7,842 nt of DNA, taken from positions 1-7,842 of the forward strand of contig JACPHL010000117.1 of the NCBI GenBank assembly GCA_016188625.1, in the 5' to 3' direction. The position numbers and the translations under genes are program-made. Source of the stretch: Candidatus Rokuibacteriota bacterium. GTDB lineage: Bacteria > Methylomirabilota > Methylomirabilia > Rokubacteriales > JACPHL01. The notes below the pieces were generated by a model. The model had not been told where the DNA came from, did no database searches, and saw only the letters and a program-made list of their open reading frames with translations. Positions 159 to 7,842 of the stretch are shown one piece after another (the stretch's first letter is position 1; every line of letters begins with the position of its first letter).

Positions 159-1853
159 CTAGAAGAGCCCCACCACGTTGCCGTGCTCATCGAGGTCGAT
201 CTTCCAGGCGTTGGGCTCGGACGGGAGCCCCGGCATGGTCCGCATCTCCCCCAGCAGCGGGTAGAGGAAGCCGGCCCCCATCGAGGCCCGGACCTCCCGG
301 ATGGGGACCCTGAACCCGCGGGGGCGCCCCTTGAGCGAGGGGTCGTGGGAGATCGAGAGGTGGGTCTTGGCCATGCAGATCGGCAGGTCGCCGTACCCCA
401 GCTCCGTGTACTTGGCGATCTGCTGCTCCGCCGCCGGGAGGTAGGTGGCCCCGTCCGCGCCGTAGATCCGGGTGGCGATGATCTCGATCTTCTCCTTGAT
501 GGGGAGCTCCAGGGGGTACAGGAACCGGAACTGGTTCGGCTTCTCGGCGGCCTTCACCACCGCCCGGGCCAACTCCTCGGCCCCCGCCCCGCCCCGGGCC
601 CAGACCTCGCTCCGGTAGGCCCCCTCGGCCCCGGCCGCCAGGGCCCGCTGGCGGATCAGCTCGATCTCCCGCTCGGTGTCGGTCCCGAAGGTGTTGATCG
701 CCACCACCACCGGGACCCCGAAGAGGCGGGCATTCTCGATCTGCTTGTCGAGGTTTTCGCACCCCAGCTCCACCGCCTCCAGGTCCTCCTTGGTCAGGCC
801 GGGGTCCAGCGGCTTCCCGGCCACGACCCGGAACCGCCCGCTGTGCATCTTGAGGGCCCGAACCGTCGTGACCATCACCACCGCGTCCGGCCGGAGCCCG
901 GAGGCGCGGCACTTGATGTTCATGAACTTCTCCATCCCCATGTCGGCCCCGAACCCGCTCTCGGTGACCACGCACTCGGCCAGCTTGAGGCCGATCTGGT
1001 CGGCCAGGATGGAGCTGTTGCCGTGGGCGATGTTGGCGAACGGGCCGGCGTGGATGAAGACCGGGGTGTGCTCGAGGGTCTGCAGGAGGGTGGGCTTGAT
1101 GGCGTCCCTGAGGAGGACCGCCATCGCCCCGGCGGCCCGGAGGGCCTCCGCCGTGACGGCCTTCCCGTCGGCGTCGAGCCCGACCACGATCCGGCCCAGC
1201 CGCTGGCGGAGGTCCTTGAGGCTGGTGGTGAGCCCCAGGATCGCCATCACCTCGGAGGCCACCGCGATGTCGAACTGGGTCTCCCGCGGGTAGCCGTGCT
1301 CCCGCCCCCCGAGCCCGATGACGACCTTCCGGAGGGCGCGGTCGCTCACGTCCACCACCCGGGGCCAGGTGATGGAGAGGGGGTCGATGCGGAGCGTGTT
1401 CCCGTGCAGGATGGAGTTGTCGATCATCGCGGCCAGGAGGTTGTGGGCGAGCGAGATGGCGTGGACGTCCCCGGTGAGGTGGAGGTTGAACTCCTCCATG
1501 GGGACGACCTGGGCGTACCCACCCCCGGCGGCGCCCCCCTTGATCCCGAAGACCGGCCCCAGCGACGGCTGACGGATGGCGGCGATGGTCCGGACGCCGA
1601 TCCGGTTCAGGGCCATGGAGAGCCCGATGGTGGTGGTCGTCTTCCCCTCGCCCAGGGGGGTGGGGGTGATGGCGGTCACGTCGATGTACTTCCCGTTGGG
1701 CCGGTCCCGGAGGCGCTCCAGGACCGAGAGGGCGACCTTGGCCTTGTACCGGCCGTACGGCTCGACCTCCTCCTCGGCGAGCCCGAGGGCCCCGGCGATC
1801 TCCACGATGGGGCGCATCGAGGCCCGCTGGGCGATCTCGAGGTCACTCAGCAT
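159..1853 (-). CDS. fhs: Formate-tetrahydrofolate ligase (10-formyl-THF synthetase)
   Basis: This cytoplasmic enzyme makes 10-formyltetrahydrofolate from formate, ATP and tetrahydrofolate, the entry step of formate into folate C1 metabolism and the methyl branch of the Wood-Ljungdahl pathway. The 564-residue product is close to the usual length of about 555-560. The phosphate-binding loop TPLGEGKTT lies at residues 65-73. The conserved glycine-rich stretch around residues 98-112 ([16 protein letters not shown]), the [10 protein letters not shown] motif (120-129) and the C-terminal TMPGLP motif (539-544) are all present. I chose the ATG at 1853 because an AGGAG sits seven bases upstream and the protein then begins as family members do; the open frame extends to 1964 but the extra 37 residues look non-coding. 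It has its own candidate promoter at 2000-2030, so it is probably separate from the upstream tauE gene. No frameshift or missing motif is seen. The visible window does not show whether it serves biosynthesis, formate assimilation or C1 oxidation. Confidence 0.97.
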
Positions 1854-2064: not shown

Positions 2065-2838
2065 CTACCACGCCTTGATGATGGTCGCGACGGCGCTGAT
2101 GACGATGAACGAGACCATGATGAGCTTGAGCGGCCGATCCGGGAGAAGGTTGGTCGCCTTGCTGCCGAGGAAGACCCCGAAGACCGACCCCGCCAGGAGC
2201 AGGCCCAGCAGCCGAAGATCCACCCCCCCGGCCGACAGGTGCGTGAGCCCGGCCGGGACGATCATGATCAGCGCGATCGCGATGTTCGACCCCACCATCT
2301 GTCGGGCCGGCATCTCGAACAGCAGGACCAGGGAGAGGACCACCAGACTCCCGCTCCCGATCGAGGTGGTCCCGAGCAGCCCGCCCACCACCAGCATGTA
2401 GAAACCGATCCCGACGATCCGTCGAAGGGGCAGCTCGTCCGGGTCCCAGCGTCGGCGGTCCGTCCCCCACGCCACCGTGGTGTCGAAGAAGATGAAAGCC
2501 GAAACCGCGATCAGGACGACTCCCATCAGGATGGGGAAGAACCGTTCCGACAGGTCCCCGGACAGGTACAGGAGCTTCGAGCCGAGGATGGCCCCGGGAA
2601 TCCCCGTGAGGCCGAACACCGCGCTGAGGCGCCATCTCACGTTGTCCTGCCGGACGTGCTGGACGAAGCCCAGGACCTTGGTCAGGAAGGAGTAGATCAG
2701 GCTCAGGGCGACCGCCTGGGTGTAGGTCAGGCCGAGGATGACGTAGAGGGCCGGGGCGACCAGGGCCCCGCCCCCGATCCCGGTCAGACCGATGCAGAAC
2801 CCGAGGACGAAGCCCAGGAGGACGGGGACGAGGATCAA
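2065..2838 (-). CDS. TauE/SafE family membrane anion exporter (probable sulfite exporter)
   Basis: A 257-residue polytopic inner-membrane protein of the TauE/SafE (formerly DUF81) family, whose characterised members export sulfite, sulfoacetate or related anions. About eight hydrophobic segments can be placed (near residues 2-30, 36-58, 70-92, 100-119, 140-172, 178-200, 207-226 and 237-254). The two-fold family repeat shows in matching motifs: GLTGIGGGALVAP (18-30) in the first half and GTTSIGSGSLVVL (156-168) in the second. The start is a TTG at 2836-2838: the frame has a stop at 2869-2871 with no ATG between, a GGAAAGG lies a few bases upstream, and the first residues already form the first helix. 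It follows the MazG-like gene by 68 nt and probably ends the qmo operon. That context favours sulfite or another sulfur oxyanion as substrate, but this is inferred; other family members move different anions. Confidence 0.88.
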   Translation of the reverse strand: MILVPVLLGFVLGFCIGLTGIGGGALVAPALYVILGLTYTQAVALSLIYSFLTKVLGFVQHVRQDNVRWRLSAVFGLTGIPGAILGSKLLYLSGDLSERFFPILMGVVLIAVSAFIFFDTTVAWGTDRRRWDPDELPLRRIVGIGFYMLVVGGLLGTTSIGSGSLVVLSLVLLFEMPARQMVGSNIAIALIMIVPAGLTHLSAGGVDLRLLGLLLAGSVFGVFLGSKATNLLPDRPLKLIMVSFIVISAVATIIKAW

Positions 2839-2906: not shown

Positions 2907-3263
2907 CTAATACTCGGTGTACTTCTTCCCCTGGCCCTTGACCAGGCCGACCGGGTACTTCCGCGCGTTGATCTCGAGCTTCTCCCGCGCGGCCTCGAGG
3001 GCGTCGATGCCCAGGTGGTCGGCGAGGTTCAGGAGGTAGATCAGGACATCGCCGATCTCCTGCCTGAGCGAGGCCCGCTTCTCCTCCGGGAGGTCGGCGC
3101 TCTCCTCCGGGGTGAGCCACTGGAAGAGCTCGACGATCTCGGCGACCTCGACGCTCAGCGCCATGGCCAGGTTCTTCGGGGAGTGGAACTTCTCCCAGTC
3201 CCGCTCCCGCGCGAACCGCCGGATCCGCTCGATCAGCTCCTCGACGCCACCCTTCGCCGGCAC
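2907..3263 (-). CDS. MazG-like nucleotide pyrophosphohydrolase (dCTPase/RS21-C6 type)
   Basis: A 118-residue all-alpha NTP pyrophosphatase of the MazG-like superfamily, which hydrolyses (d)NTPs, often non-canonical ones, to the monophosphate plus pyrophosphate. The metal-binding EXXE and EXXD motifs are intact: E39 and E42 (with E45) in EVAEIVELFQW, and E69 and D72 in EIGDVLIYL. The FHSPKNLAMAL segment (26-36) before the first motif and the KYP near residue 103 are typical of the RS21-C6/DCTPP1 subgroup rather than the longer two-domain MazG. The start is a GTG at 3261-3263, three bases after the qmoC stop, with a G-rich Shine-Dalgarno-like stretch overlapping the end of qmoC, so it is probably translationally coupled. 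It has no known role in electron transfer; house-cleaning of damaged nucleotides is the default reading. The exact substrate cannot be read from sequence. Confidence 0.9.
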   Translation of the reverse strand: MPAKGGVEELIERIRRFARERDWEKFHSPKNLAMALSVEVAEIVELFQWLTPEESADLPEEKRASLRQEIGDVLIYLLNLADHLGIDALEAAREKLEINARKYPVGLVKGQGKKYTEY

Positions 3264-4414: not shown

Positions 4415-6550
4415 TCAGAGTCCCTTCATGGGATTCGGGCCGACGGCCCGGATCACGTCCACGAACGCCTCGATCATGGCCGGGAGCCTGTCCGAGTCCG
4501 AGATCGCCACCTCCATGACCTGCACCCGCTCGGACTCCAGCATCTGGCGCCCCAGCGTCTCCCGGATGTTCTCCATCCGCGTCCCGAGCAGCTCGCTCCC
4601 CCGGATGAAGTGGCACTGGTAGTCCTCGCCGGGCTTGCAGCCCATGAGGATGACGCCATCGAACCCGCGGGTCACGGCGTCGGCGACGAGGATGGCGTTG
4701 ACCGAGCCCAGGCAGCGCACCGGGATCACGCGGACCCCCGCCGCGTACTGCAGCCGGTTGATCCCCGCCATGTCGAGGGCGGGATAGGCGTCGTTCTCGC
4801 AGGCCAGGGCCAGGATCCGCGGCCTGTCCTCGGCCTCCGGGATCTCGACGGCCCTGATCATCGAGGAGAGCATGTCGATGGAGTAGTCGTTGAAGGAGAT
4901 GATCTGGACCGGACAGGCGCCCATGCAGATCCCGCAGCGCCGGCACCGGTTGGTGCTCAGCACCGGGTTCCCCCGCTCGTTCTTCTCGAGGGCGCCGAAC
5001 GGGCACTCCTGCATGCACCGGCCGCAGGACGTGCACTTCTGCATGAAGAACTCCGGATACGAGAGGTCCCCGACCCGGGGGTGGACCGCCTGCCCGGCGG
5101 AGGATTTCTCGATGCATTGGATCGCCTTGAGCGCCGCGGCCCGGCCGTCCTGGGCGGTCAGCGCCAGGTCCATCGCCGACCGCACCGCGCCGGCGGAGTA
5201 GATGCCGGTCCGGCGCGTCTCGTACGGGAAGCAGATGAAGTGGGAGTCGGCATAGCCGAACGGCGTGGTGGGGACGTTCCTCCCCTGGAGGTAGGCGAGG
5301 CCGAGCGGTCCTTCCTGATCGAGCGTGGAGGGGAGCATCCCGGTGGCGAGGACCAGCAGGTCGGCCACCACCTGGATGTCCCTGGCTATCACGCTGTCGC
5401 CCACCTCGAGCACGAGGCTCTGCTCCCGATCCTCCCGGATCGCGCGGATCTGCCCGCGGGAGAGGAGGATGCCCGGATCGGCCTGGACCGCCCGGTAGAA
5501 GTACTCGTAATGCCCCGGAGTGTTCATGTCGTCGTAGAAGATGTACGCGGTCGCGTCCGCCTGCTGCGTCCGGACGTAGAGCGCCTGCTTGAGGGCCACC
5601 AGGCACGCCACGCTCCCACCGTACGGCAGATGCCCCTCGTCGCCGGGACTGTCGCAGAGGAGGAACGCCACCCGCCGGGCCGGACGGCCGTCCGAGGGGC
5701 GGGCGATCGCTCCCCGCGCCGCCATCTCCTCGAGCTCCACGCTGGTGACGACGTTCCGGTACCGTCCGAGGCCGTAGCGCTCGTACTGCGCCGGCTCGGG
5801 CGGCCGCCAACCGGTGGCCATGACGATCGCCCCGACCGCGACCTCGGTGCCGCCCCCCGGTCCGTCGATCCGCGCGGCGAACCGGCCGGGCTCGCCCGTG
5901 ACCTGCCGTACCTGCGCGCTCGTCAGCACCTGCACGTTCGGGAGCGACCGGACCTCGCGGATCCGCTCCGCGATGTCCACGTCCTCGAGTCGCTCGTAGG
6001 GCGGGCGCTTGGGGAACTGCTTGTGGAGCTTCCGGGCATAGCCGCCCAGCTCGGCCTCCTTCTCGACGAGGACGACACGGAGCCCGCTCCGGGCCGCGCC
6101 GATCGCGGCGGCGAGCCCCGCGGCGCCGCCCCCGACGACCAGCACGGTCCGCTCGTTGGCCTCCGTGTACGGCCTGGGCGGCTGCGCCTTCTGCGCGCGG
6201 ACCACCCCCATGCGGAGGTAGTCCTCGGCGAGGCCCTGGGTCTCCTCGTGGTTCGGGGCGTGGCTCCAGGCGACCTGCTCGCGGATGTTGACCCGCTCCA
6301 CGAAGGCGGAGGGAAACCGGAAGACATCGGTGTTGACCCGGGGGGAGCAGGCGGCGATGACGACCGAGTCCACGCCGTTCTGCTCGACGTCCGTCCGGAT
6401 GAGCCGGGCGTCTTCGAGGCAGAAGGCGGGCGACGTGCGCACCGGGGCGTCTGGGTTCGCCGCCTTGGCGAGCTCCACCAGCTTCTGGGTGTCGAGGGTG
6501 CCCGCGATCCCGCACCCGCCGCAGATGTAGATGCCGGTCTTCTTGCCCAT
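4415..6550 (-). CDS. qmoB: Qmo complex subunit QmoB (HdrA-like flavoprotein with MvhD domain)
   Basis: A cytoplasmic FAD and iron-sulfur subunit of the Qmo complex, which in sulfate reducers links menaquinol to APS reductase. The 711-residue product runs: an N-terminal HdrA-like region with CGGC (10-13), C44 and C68; a dinucleotide-binding fold with GGGAAG (140-145) followed by VEKEAELGG (162-170); a second flavoprotein segment with LVLATGM (399-405); and two ferredoxin motifs, C506-C509-C512-C516 and C536-C539-C542-C546. The C-terminal MvhD-like domain (about 575-700) has cysteines C584, C613, C638 and C646, probably for a [2Fe-2S] cluster. The HdrA plus MvhD arrangement is the hallmark of QmoB. 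Where typical HdrA carries a YCSxxCC motif, this protein has only C299 and C316. The ATG at 6548-6550 has a GAGG only three bases upstream. It is two bases from qmoC but 213 bases from qmoA, a gap filled by a large inverted repeat. An HdrA of a heterodisulfide reductase is the alternative and is less likely. Confidence 0.93.
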   Translation of the reverse strand: MGKKTGIYICGGCGIAGTLDTQKLVELAKAANPDAPVRTSPAFCLEDARLIRTDVEQNGVDSVVIAACSPRVNTDVFRFPSAFVERVNIREQVAWSHAPNHEETQGLAEDYLRMGVVRAQKAQPPRPYTEANERTVLVVGGGAAGLAAAIGAARSGLRVVLVEKEAELGGYARKLHKQFPKRPPYERLEDVDIAERIREVRSLPNVQVLTSAQVRQVTGEPGRFAARIDGPGGGTEVAVGAIVMATGWRPPEPAQYERYGLGRYRNVVTSVELEEMAARGAIARPSDGRPARRVAFLLCDSPGDEGHLPYGGSVACLVALKQALYVRTQQADATAYIFYDDMNTPGHYEYFYRAVQADPGILLSRGQIRAIREDREQSLVLEVGDSVIARDIQVVADLLVLATGMLPSTLDQEGPLGLAYLQGRNVPTTPFGYADSHFICFPYETRRTGIYSAGAVRSAMDLALTAQDGRAAALKAIQCIEKSSAGQAVHPRVGDLSYPEFFMQKCTSCGRCMQECPFGALEKNERGNPVLSTNRCRRCGICMGACPVQIISFNDYSIDMLSSMIRAVEIPEAEDRPRILALACENDAYPALDMAGINRLQYAAGVRVIPVRCLGSVNAILVADAVTRGFDGVILMGCKPGEDYQCHFIRGSELLGTRMENIRETLGRQMLESERVQVMEVAISDSDRLPAMIEAFVDVIRAVGPNPMKGL

Positions 6551-6584
6551 TAGCCTCGCAGGGGGGCTCCGCCGACTCCTGACA

Positions 6585-6767
6585 TTAGCCGCGACTATTC
6601 ATGAACGGCTTTCCACGAGGCGGACGGGTCCTGTCGCGCCGGGCAGCCCCACTCGGCTCGCCACCCCCGCCCGGTGTGGGGTCCCCCGGCTCGCCGCGTG
6701 GGGCGCCCCGCCCGGCGCGCCACCCGTCCGCCGTCCGCTGCCGGCGTTCATGGATAATCCCGGTTAG
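6585..6767. repeat. Large imperfect inverted repeat between qmoA and qmoB (MITE-like)
   Basis: Nearly the whole spacer is one inverted repeat centred near 6676. The outer 25-bp arms (6585-6609 and 6743-6767) match at 19 of 25 positions, including eight in a row, CATGAACG. Inside, exact complementary blocks occur in the same order: 6619-6629 with 6722-6732 (11 bp), 6635-6644 with 6710-6719 (10 bp) and 6646-6652 with 6698-6704 (7 bp). The centre holds a direct repeat of GGCTCGCC (6655-6662 and 6688-6695). Both ends carry TTAG or its near-equivalent with a TA dinucleotide (6586-6587 and 6765-6766), as would follow insertion at TA. No transposase is present. The right end overlaps the qmoA stop codon (6764-6766). 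It could be a small non-autonomous element or a conserved mRNA hairpin; I do not recognise it as a named repeat. Confidence 0.75.
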
Positions 6768-7842
6768 GCCCGTGGCGCCTGGGCGCCGGCGGCGCTCTGG
6801 ATCGTCGCGATGGCCATCGCGGCGGCGGCCGTCGCATCCTGCACCGACGTCGCCACGTCCACGGGGGCCTTGGCGCAGCCGGCCGCGAAGATGCCGTCCC
6901 CGGTCTCGGCCTGCAAGACGAAGTGGTCCTTGTCGAGGGCGAGCGGCCCGGCCGGCCGGCCCTGGGCCAGGCTCGACGCCATCCCGGTGGCGAGGACCAC
7001 CAGATCCACCGGGAGCCGGACCTTCTCGAACGAGAGGATATTCTCCGCTTCCACGATCAGCTTCCGGGCGCCGGGGTCCTCGGTGATCCGGGCCACCTTG
7101 CCCTTCATCACGCTGATCCGCTCGTCCTTGAGCACCTTCTGGGTGAAGAACTCGTAGGTCCCCGGCGTCCGGAGGTCGATGTAGAAGACGTACGCCCGCG
7201 CGTTCGGGTTCTGCTCGCGCAGGTACGTCGCCTCCTTCAGGGAGGCCAGGCAGCAGATGCTCGAGCAATACCCCAGGTGGTTCACGTCGCGCGAGCCCGC
7301 GCACTGGACGAAGACCGCGCTCTCGACCTCCCGGCCGTCCGACGGCCGGAGGATCCGCCCCTGCGTCGGCCCGTTCGCCGCTGCCAGCCGCTCCATCATG
7401 ACGTTCGTGATCACGTTGCGAACGACGTCGGGATACCTGCCGAACCCGAGGTTGTCGATGCGGCCCGCCTCGTAGGGGTCCCAGCCCGTCGCGATGATGA
7501 TCGCGCCGGCCTTGAGCGTGAGGGTCTTCGGCTGCATCGTCAGGTCGATGGCGTCATAGGCGCACACCTCGACGCACTTCGCGCACTCGGTGAGCCTGCA
7601 CGCCGACTCGTCGATGGCGTACTTCATCGGGAACGCCATCTCGTGCGCGAGGTAGATGGCCTTGGTCTTGCCCAGCCCGAAGTTGAAGGCATTCGGGCGC
7701 TCGACCGGGCAGACGGCGACGCACGCGTTGCAGGCCGTGCACCGGTCGTTCACGTAGCGGGGGCGCAGCCTCACCGTGACGTCGAAGTTGCCCGGCCGGC
7801 CGGAGATCCCCTCCACCTCGGCCATGGTGTGGAAGCGGACCT
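6764..7842 (-). CDS. qmoA: Qmo complex subunit QmoA (HdrA-like flavoprotein), N-terminus outside the window
   Basis: The C-terminal 358 residues of an HdrA-like flavoprotein that partners QmoB. The frame is open to the window edge. The ATG at 7823-7825 is not taken as the start, because the residues around it (VRFHTMAEVEGISG) read as the middle of an HdrA-like protein, and the N-terminal FAD motif must lie beyond 7842. Counting from that methionine, a ferredoxin motif is C29-C32-C35-C39 and a second cluster motif is C76-C81-C84-C88 (CRLTECAKCVEVC). The HdrA-type cysteines C175, C187, C191 and C192 are present (CAGSRD then YCSSICC). The flavin-fold motif LVVLATGM lies at 275-282 and the C-terminal FAAGC at 313-317. 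Together with qmoB and qmoC downstream this gives the usual qmoABC order. The stop is TAA at 6764-6766, inside the end of the inverted-repeat element. Confidence 0.9.
   Translation of the reverse strand, partial: VRFHTMAEVEGISGRPGNFDVTVRLRPRYVNDRCTACNACVAVCPVERPNAFNFGLGKTKAIYLAHEMAFPMKYAIDESACRLTECAKCVEVCAYDAIDLTMQPKTLTLKAGAIIIATGWDPYEAGRIDNLGFGRYPDVVRNVITNVMMERLAAANGPTQGRILRPSDGREVESAVFVQCAGSRDVNHLGYCSSICCLASLKEATYLREQNPNARAYVFYIDLRTPGTYEFFTQKVLKDERISVMKGKVARITEDPGARKLIVEAENILSFEKVRLPVDLVVLATGMASSLAQGRPAGPLALDKDHFVLQAETGDGIFAAGCAKAPVDVATSVQDATAAAAMAIATIQSAAGAQAPRA

What the first reader, a model, noticed from the sequence alone, without database searches (positions are those of the whole stretch)
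6585..6767. A 183-bp inverted-repeat element splits qmoA from qmoB
Elsewhere in the cluster genes are 2-68 nt apart, but qmoA and qmoB are separated by 213 nt that is almost entirely one imperfect palindrome. Its arms hold exact 7-11 bp complementary blocks in matching order, and its terminal repeats match at 19 of 25 positions. The mismatched ends with conserved inner blocks look like an aged MITE, possibly inserted at TA, or a structure kept by selection. In the mRNA it would form a very stable GC hairpin inside an operon whose products must form one complex, so it could cause RNA processing, attenuation or unequal qmoA:qmoB expression.
Basis: partly seen in the sequence, partly recalled or inferred. 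Interest (0 to 1): 0.6.

Follow-up and report, generated by a model that had tools for sequence, protein, structure and literature searches.

The report
Mobile element carrying a widespread hairpin
A small non-autonomous transposon has inserted exactly at the stop codon of qmoA in a Rokubacteriales-like bacterium, and inside it sits a conserved hairpin that recurs in unrelated mini-transposons and at other intergenic sites across many bacterial phyla, with an unknown role.

Summary
The 213-nt qmoA-qmoB spacer holds a 175-bp inverted-repeat element between 4-bp direct repeats (CTAA). It is not single copy: the draft genome holds at least 14 copies at 83-98% identity. In eight relatives of the same order the spacer is 4-14 nt. 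Full-length IS elements with the same terminal repeats in relatives encode an IS1380-family transposase, so this is a non-autonomous IS1380-type MITE. It inserted at a CTAR site that is also qmoA's stop codon; 18 of 23 sibling insertions also end an open frame exactly there, because CTAG is rare in this GC-rich DNA and mostly found at stop codons.

The unexpected part is the centre: a hairpin (CGGGTGGC...GACAGGACCCG) with an invariant internal loop. It occurs in over 100 loci from roughly a dozen phyla, in elements with at least five other sets of inverted repeats (one has 2-bp duplications), and also without recognisable MITE ends. Its stems covary, with strand-specific wobble tolerance. It matches no Rfam family, and I found no description in the papers held. 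A model built without Rokubacterial sequences finds the window copy (E 9e-5).

What the hairpin does is unknown. An effect on qmo expression is possible but untested.

The parts
6764..7825 (-). qmoA (incomplete: the frame is still open at the contig edge); its stop codon TAA lies inside the target-site duplication
   Evidence: 79-81% identical to the nearest relatives
6764..6767 (-). target-site duplication, copy next to qmoA (CTAA on the sense strand)
   Evidence: direct repeat with 6585-6588
6589..6763 (-). the 175-bp non-autonomous IS1380-type element (MITE)
   Evidence: >=14 copies in the genome; ends shared with full-length IS1380-family IS
6745..6763 (-). terminal inverted repeat, qmoA side (CCGGGATTATCCATGAACG)
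6589..6607 (+). terminal inverted repeat, qmoB side (CCGCGACTATTCATGAACG)
6620..6731 (-). conserved hairpin module (CGGGTGGCGC...GCGACAGGACCCG at 6726-6625)
   Evidence: covariance model built without Rokubacterial sequences, 29.9 bits, E 9.3e-5
6720..6721 (-). 5' side (GG) of the invariant internal loop
6630..6634 (-). 3' side (ACAGG) of the invariant internal loop
6585..6588 (-). target-site duplication, copy on the qmoB side (CTAA on the sense strand)
6551..6584 (-). remaining 34 nt between the element and qmoB
4415..6550 (-). qmoB (711 aa, FlpD/MvhD domain)
   Evidence: 60-78% identical in relatives

Best explanation
A non-autonomous mini-transposon (MITE) whose ends belong to the IS1380 insertion-sequence family was moved in trans by an IS1380-type transposase. 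It inserted into a CTAR tetranucleotide that formed the end of qmoA (...C-TAR, where TAR is the stop codon) and duplicated 4 bp, so qmoA kept its stop codon and reading frame. Before that, qmoA and qmoB were probably only about 4-14 nt apart, as in relatives. Inside the MITE is a conserved hairpin module (CGGGTGGC - stem - GACAGGACCCG, internal loop GG/ACAGG) that also rides inside mini-elements with other terminal repeats in other phyla and occurs at sites without recognisable MITE ends; it appears to be kept by selection as a folded single strand of one polarity (RNA or single-stranded DNA). Shown: multicopy, lineage-specific insertion, shared ends with IS1380-family IS, stop codon in the duplicated target, membership of the hairpin family, stem covariation. 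Inferred: that the transposase acted in trans; that close qmoA-qmoB spacing was lost and a very stable hairpin now sits in the qmo mRNA; any effect on expression. Not known: what the hairpin module does.
For: At least 14 copies in the draft genome, 83-98% identical. Spacer 4-14 nt in eight relatives against 213 nt here. Same ends, CTAG-NNN-GGATTATTCATGAACG, in 36 of 59 genomes of the order; three ~1.5-1.7 kb elements with these ends encode similar transposases, the one scanned matching PF13701 at E 1.9e-126. CTAA in direct orientation at both ends in the window and in L075, no pair inverted. 18 of 23 elements end an open frame of >=100 codons exactly in the duplication, against 0.33% of random positions. 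Stems covary: 91.2% of cells paired against 77.9% shuffled, covariation score 0.322 against 0.100, slid versions at most 0.076. Model from non-Rokubacterial copies finds the window copy. G.T 13 against A.C 1 in the inner stem, p = 0.002. Same core in elements with other ends.
Against: No IS1380 transposase in the own draft genome, which is 84% complete. Only two elements have a non-CTAG direct duplication, so the duplication rests on few cases. CTAG sites elsewhere in the same loci are also mostly stop codons (5 of 9), so no stop-codon preference beyond CTAG is shown. The model's hit in the window is moderate (29.9 bits with a large composition correction), and the strict-filter genome search missed the own genome's copies. 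The inner three stem pairs were fixed by the search pattern.
Confidence: 0.86

Rival explanations
1. The hairpin module is a structured RNA, for example a processing site or insulator that makes insertions tolerable inside transcripts, and it acts that way in the qmo mRNA too.
For: Covarying stems with an invariant internal loop; G.T tolerated but not A.C on one strand; truncated copies keep the loop (L061, L118, L314, L321); several copies sit inside operons right after a stop codon.
Against: No preferred orientation relative to neighbouring genes (25 --, 19 ++, 18 +-, 13 -+); no Rfam match; no sigma-70-like promoter match near the window copy.
Confidence: 0.35
2. The hairpin module acts as folded single-stranded DNA, recognised by a host or transposition factor, and this helps unrelated mini-elements to spread.
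For: No gene-orientation bias; carried by elements with different ends and different duplication lengths; flank inverted copies suggest fold-back synthesis; single-strand constraint.
Against: No enzyme found; not associated with Y1 (HUH) transposases.
Confidence: 0.4
3. The hairpin is a qmo-specific regulatory structure (attenuator or stoichiometry control) kept by selection at this locus.
For: It lies between two genes whose products form one complex and is very stable.
Against: The same element occurs at 13 or more other sites in the genome; relatives lack it at qmoA-qmoB; no terminator-like site.
Confidence: 0.04
4. It is a REP/REPIN-type repeat moved by a RAYT (Y1/HUH) transposase.
For: Multicopy, palindromic, mostly intergenic; some RAYT-like genes are flanked by non-REP inverted repeats (PMC3733652).
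Against: No Y1 transposase found in G000, G034, G047, G048, G087 or G095, and none flanked by the hairpin elsewhere; the window element has IS1380-type ends instead.
Confidence: 0.03

Closest known systems
MITEs derived from insertion sequences, here of the IS1380 family
   Same: Short, non-coding, terminal inverted repeats, short target duplication, many copies, full-length IS with the same ends in relatives.
   Different: Its centre is not a remnant of the IS: the full-length elements lack the hairpin motif, and the same centre is found in elements with other ends.
REP/REPIN repeats and TIR repeats of TIRtrons (RAYT/TIRYT systems, PMC3733652)
   Same: Palindromic, multicopy, intergenic, often with unpaired loop bases.
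   Different: No association with Y1 transposases; far longer; cross-phylum conserved internal loop.
Structured bacterial RNAs catalogued in Rfam (e.g. the 2010 set, PMC2864571)
   Same: Covarying stems, invariant internal loop, wide taxonomic spread.
   Different: No Rfam match; no gene-orientation bias; carried by transposon-like elements.
BOX, RUP, NEMIS, QMITE2 and similar bacterial MITEs with structured transcripts (PMC10969869, PMC3733652)
   Same: Mini-elements whose transcripts would form stable stem-loops and may affect neighbouring genes.
   Different: I know these as lineage-restricted families (from memory); here one module is shared by elements of unrelated ends and many phyla.

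Membership tests
MITE | Terminal inverted repeats | tested here: met
   19 of 25 end positions match; arms 82% complementary
MITE | Multiple copies in the genome | tested here: met
   >=14 copies, 83-98% identity
MITE | Target-site duplication | tested here: met
   CTAA direct repeat at both ends; no inverted case
MITE | No transposase gene of its own | tested here: met
   175 bp, too short to encode one
MITE | Insertion absent from the orthologous site in relatives | tested here: met
   spacer 4-14 nt in eight relatives
IS1380-derived element | Ends shared with an IS whose transposase is of the IS1380 type (PF13701) | tested here: met
   L111-L113 carry these ends and similar transposases; the L111 transposase matches PF13701, E 1.9e-126
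IS1380-derived element | Short duplication of about 4-5 bp | tested here: met
   4 bp here; IS1247 of this family is listed with 5 bp (PMC3281130)
IS1380-derived element | Autonomous partner in the same genome | tested here: not met
   no PF13701 match in the 84%-complete draft; not required for an old or currently immobile MITE
Hairpin family described here | Match to a model built from other phyla | tested here: met
   29.9 bits, E 9.3e-5, right strand and position
REP/REPIN (RAYT) | Associated Y1 transposase in the genome | tested here: not met
   none in G000
REP/REPIN (RAYT) | GTAG (or CGTC) tag next to a short palindrome | not tested
   no such tag was seen at the aligned hairpin ends, but no dedicated test was run
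Rfam RNA family | Match above the family's gathering score | tested here: not met
   no match at the element
Structured RNA | Covarying stems | tested here: met
   0 of 500 shuffles reach the score
Structured RNA | Transcription of the hairpin strand | not testable with these tools
   no expression data
Intrinsic terminator | GC stem followed by a T run | tested here: not met
   0 sites in 6400-7000

The most novel reading that the evidence does not exclude
The centre of this element is a so far undescribed, widespread mobile hairpin module, functional as a folded single strand, that has been taken up repeatedly by mini-transposons of different transposase families in about a dozen bacterial phyla, and whose insertion comes with, or provokes, inverted copying of its flanks.
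Probability: 0.4. Interest if true: 0.8.

Novelty: new variant of a known kind. Interest (0 to 1): 0.62.

Why it matters
As a MITE the element is ordinary, but it explains why the insertion did no obvious harm: its CTAG-type target is mostly a stop codon in these genomes. The hairpin is the interesting part. The same folded module, with the same internal loop, recurs in Nitrospira, Acidobacteria, Omnitrophota, Actinobacteria, candidate phyla and Rokubacteria, inside elements with different ends. That pattern calls for either a shared host factor that recognises it or a shared benefit to unrelated mobile elements, and it gives a concrete sequence with which to test this.

Tried and rejected
Chance palindrome: rejected by 14 or more copies. 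qmo-specific regulator as the origin: rejected by the other copies and by relatives' spacers. Known RNA family: three Rfam searches, nothing at the element. RAYT-mobilised REP: no association. Terminator: no T run. Phage or plasmid spread: no exact match in viral contigs, no blastn match in plasmids. The hairpin as a fixed part of the IS1380 element: rejected, since the full-length IS lack its motif and it occurs inside other element types. Stop-codon targeting beyond CTAG: not supported, other CTAG sites behave alike. Literature: seven searches found no description, but most subscription papers are not held.

Full report
What is there. The window is one whole contig (G000:C242) of a 2.6-Mb, 84%-complete draft genome. 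One member of its order appears to be the genome of Candidatus Rokubacteria RIFCSPLOWO2_02_FULL_73_56: G039:C45 and MGCF01000045 (L165) are both 9,699 bp and carry the same hairpin. So the order is most likely Rokubacteriales. The minus strand carries qmoA, qmoB and a qmoC-like gene. The qmoA frame is still open at the contig edge, so qmoA is incomplete here.

The spacer is 213 nt, the 25-nt ends of 6585-6767 match at 19 of 25 positions, and the segment folds more stably than all but 1 of 200 dinucleotide shuffles.

It is a mobile element. The own genome has at least 14 copies (83-98% identity), several at contig ends. In eight relatives of the order with a qmoA-qmoB junction the spacer is 4-14 nt, so the insertion is specific to this lineage. 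The ends, CTAG-NNN-GGATTATTCATGAACG, occur in 36 of 59 genomes of the order. In three of them they bound ~1.5-1.7 kb elements that encode similar transposases; the one scanned is of the IS1380 type (PF13701, E 1.9e-126). The own draft has no such transposase.

Target. The outer four bases are CTAG at both ends in 27 of 49 pairs. CTAG is its own complement, so it cannot distinguish a duplication from a terminal repeat; but in the window and in L075 the tetranucleotide is CTAA in direct orientation at both ends, and no pair is inverted. The duplication holds qmoA's stop codon TAA. In 18 of 23 elements an open frame of 100 or more codons ends exactly there, against 0.33% of random positions, but other CTAG sites in the same loci behave alike (5 of 9). 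Reading: the enzyme chooses CTAR; in these GC-rich genomes CTAG is rare and mostly a stop codon; the insertion therefore leaves the gene intact.

The centre is a wider family. The element contains CGGGTGGCGC...GCGACAGGACCCG with internal loop GG/ACAGG. None was found in viral contigs, and blastn with the hairpin found none in plasmids. In 47 divergent non-Rokubacterial copies the stems covary: 91% of cells paired, covariation score 0.322 against 0.100 shuffled and at most 0.076 slid. A model from these alone finds the window copy on the expected strand and position, and has matches in 20 of 95 genomes of the phylum (the strict filters missed the own genome's copies). In the inner stem G.T mismatches outnumber A.C 13 to 1 (p = 0.002), while the outer flank pairs do not (8 to 6): constraint on one strand, as RNA or single-stranded DNA.

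Different carriers. In an Acidobacterium (G104) near-identical elements of about 150 bp with ends CAGGCGGTTTCATAACC carry the same core; most are flanked by TA on both sides, one by AA and one by TC in direct orientation, i.e. 2-bp duplications. Other ends: GCGTTGCGAAATTACG (G105), GCGTTGCAGAATT (G106), and two types in one genome, G087. Truncated copies keep the internal loop bases (L061, L118, L314, L321). Other copies have no recognisable MITE ends, yet the bases just outside the core are locus-specific and complementary (score 5 or more in 52%, against 8% for swapped flanks; part of this excess comes from copies that do lie in MITEs). At nuoA-nuoB of three Nitrospira genomes the outer arm pairs with the coding end of nuoA; four related genomes lacking the core have the same nuoA end but no such inverted copy beside it. 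This fits inverted copying with or after insertion rather than a pre-existing palindrome; one locus is thin evidence.

What it does. There is no orientation preference relative to genes, no Rfam match, no terminator-like site, and no association with Y1 transposases. I cannot say what the hairpin does. Two readings remain about equally likely: a structured RNA, or a single-stranded DNA hairpin recognised by a host or transposition factor. For qmo, the inferred consequence is loss of close qmoA-qmoB spacing and a very stable hairpin in the mRNA; no expression data were available.

Limits. The inner three pairs of the aligned copies were fixed by the search pattern. E-values of the model are rough. 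Gene context used simple ORF picks, not a gene finder. The literature library lacks most subscription papers, so 'undescribed' means not found here.

Noticed in passing
L194 (Nitrospira moscoviensis), L127, L274; orthologous sites L275-L278: At nuoA-nuoB three Nitrospira genomes carry the hairpin right after the nuoA stop codon, with an inverted copy of the nuoA end on the far side; related genomes without the hairpin have other, unrelated imperfect inverted repeats in that spacer.
   Followed up: partly
L003 (G000:C309) and L009 (G000:C64): Copies with tandem duplication of one arm or of an end plus its flank, suggesting slippage or repeated events at the element's ends.
   Followed up: no
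L133 (Acidimicrobiales): A hairpin whose arms are expanded as tandem repeats, so that several GGGTGGCG/GACAGGACCC units are stacked in one long hairpin.
   Followed up: no
L052, L099, L102: Elements in which both duplicated CTAG ends are stop codons of converging open frames, so one insertion separated two genes that met at a shared CTAG.
   Followed up: partly
G038, G034, G043 of the order: These genomes hold about 130, 70 and 66 matches to the IS1380-type end, so the family is much more abundant there than in the window's genome; several short elements lack the hairpin.
   Followed up: no
window 159-1853 (-), 2065-2838 (-), 2907-3263 (-): Neighbours of the qmo genes: formate-tetrahydrofolate ligase, a TauE/SafE-type exporter and a MazG-like protein.
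   Followed up: no
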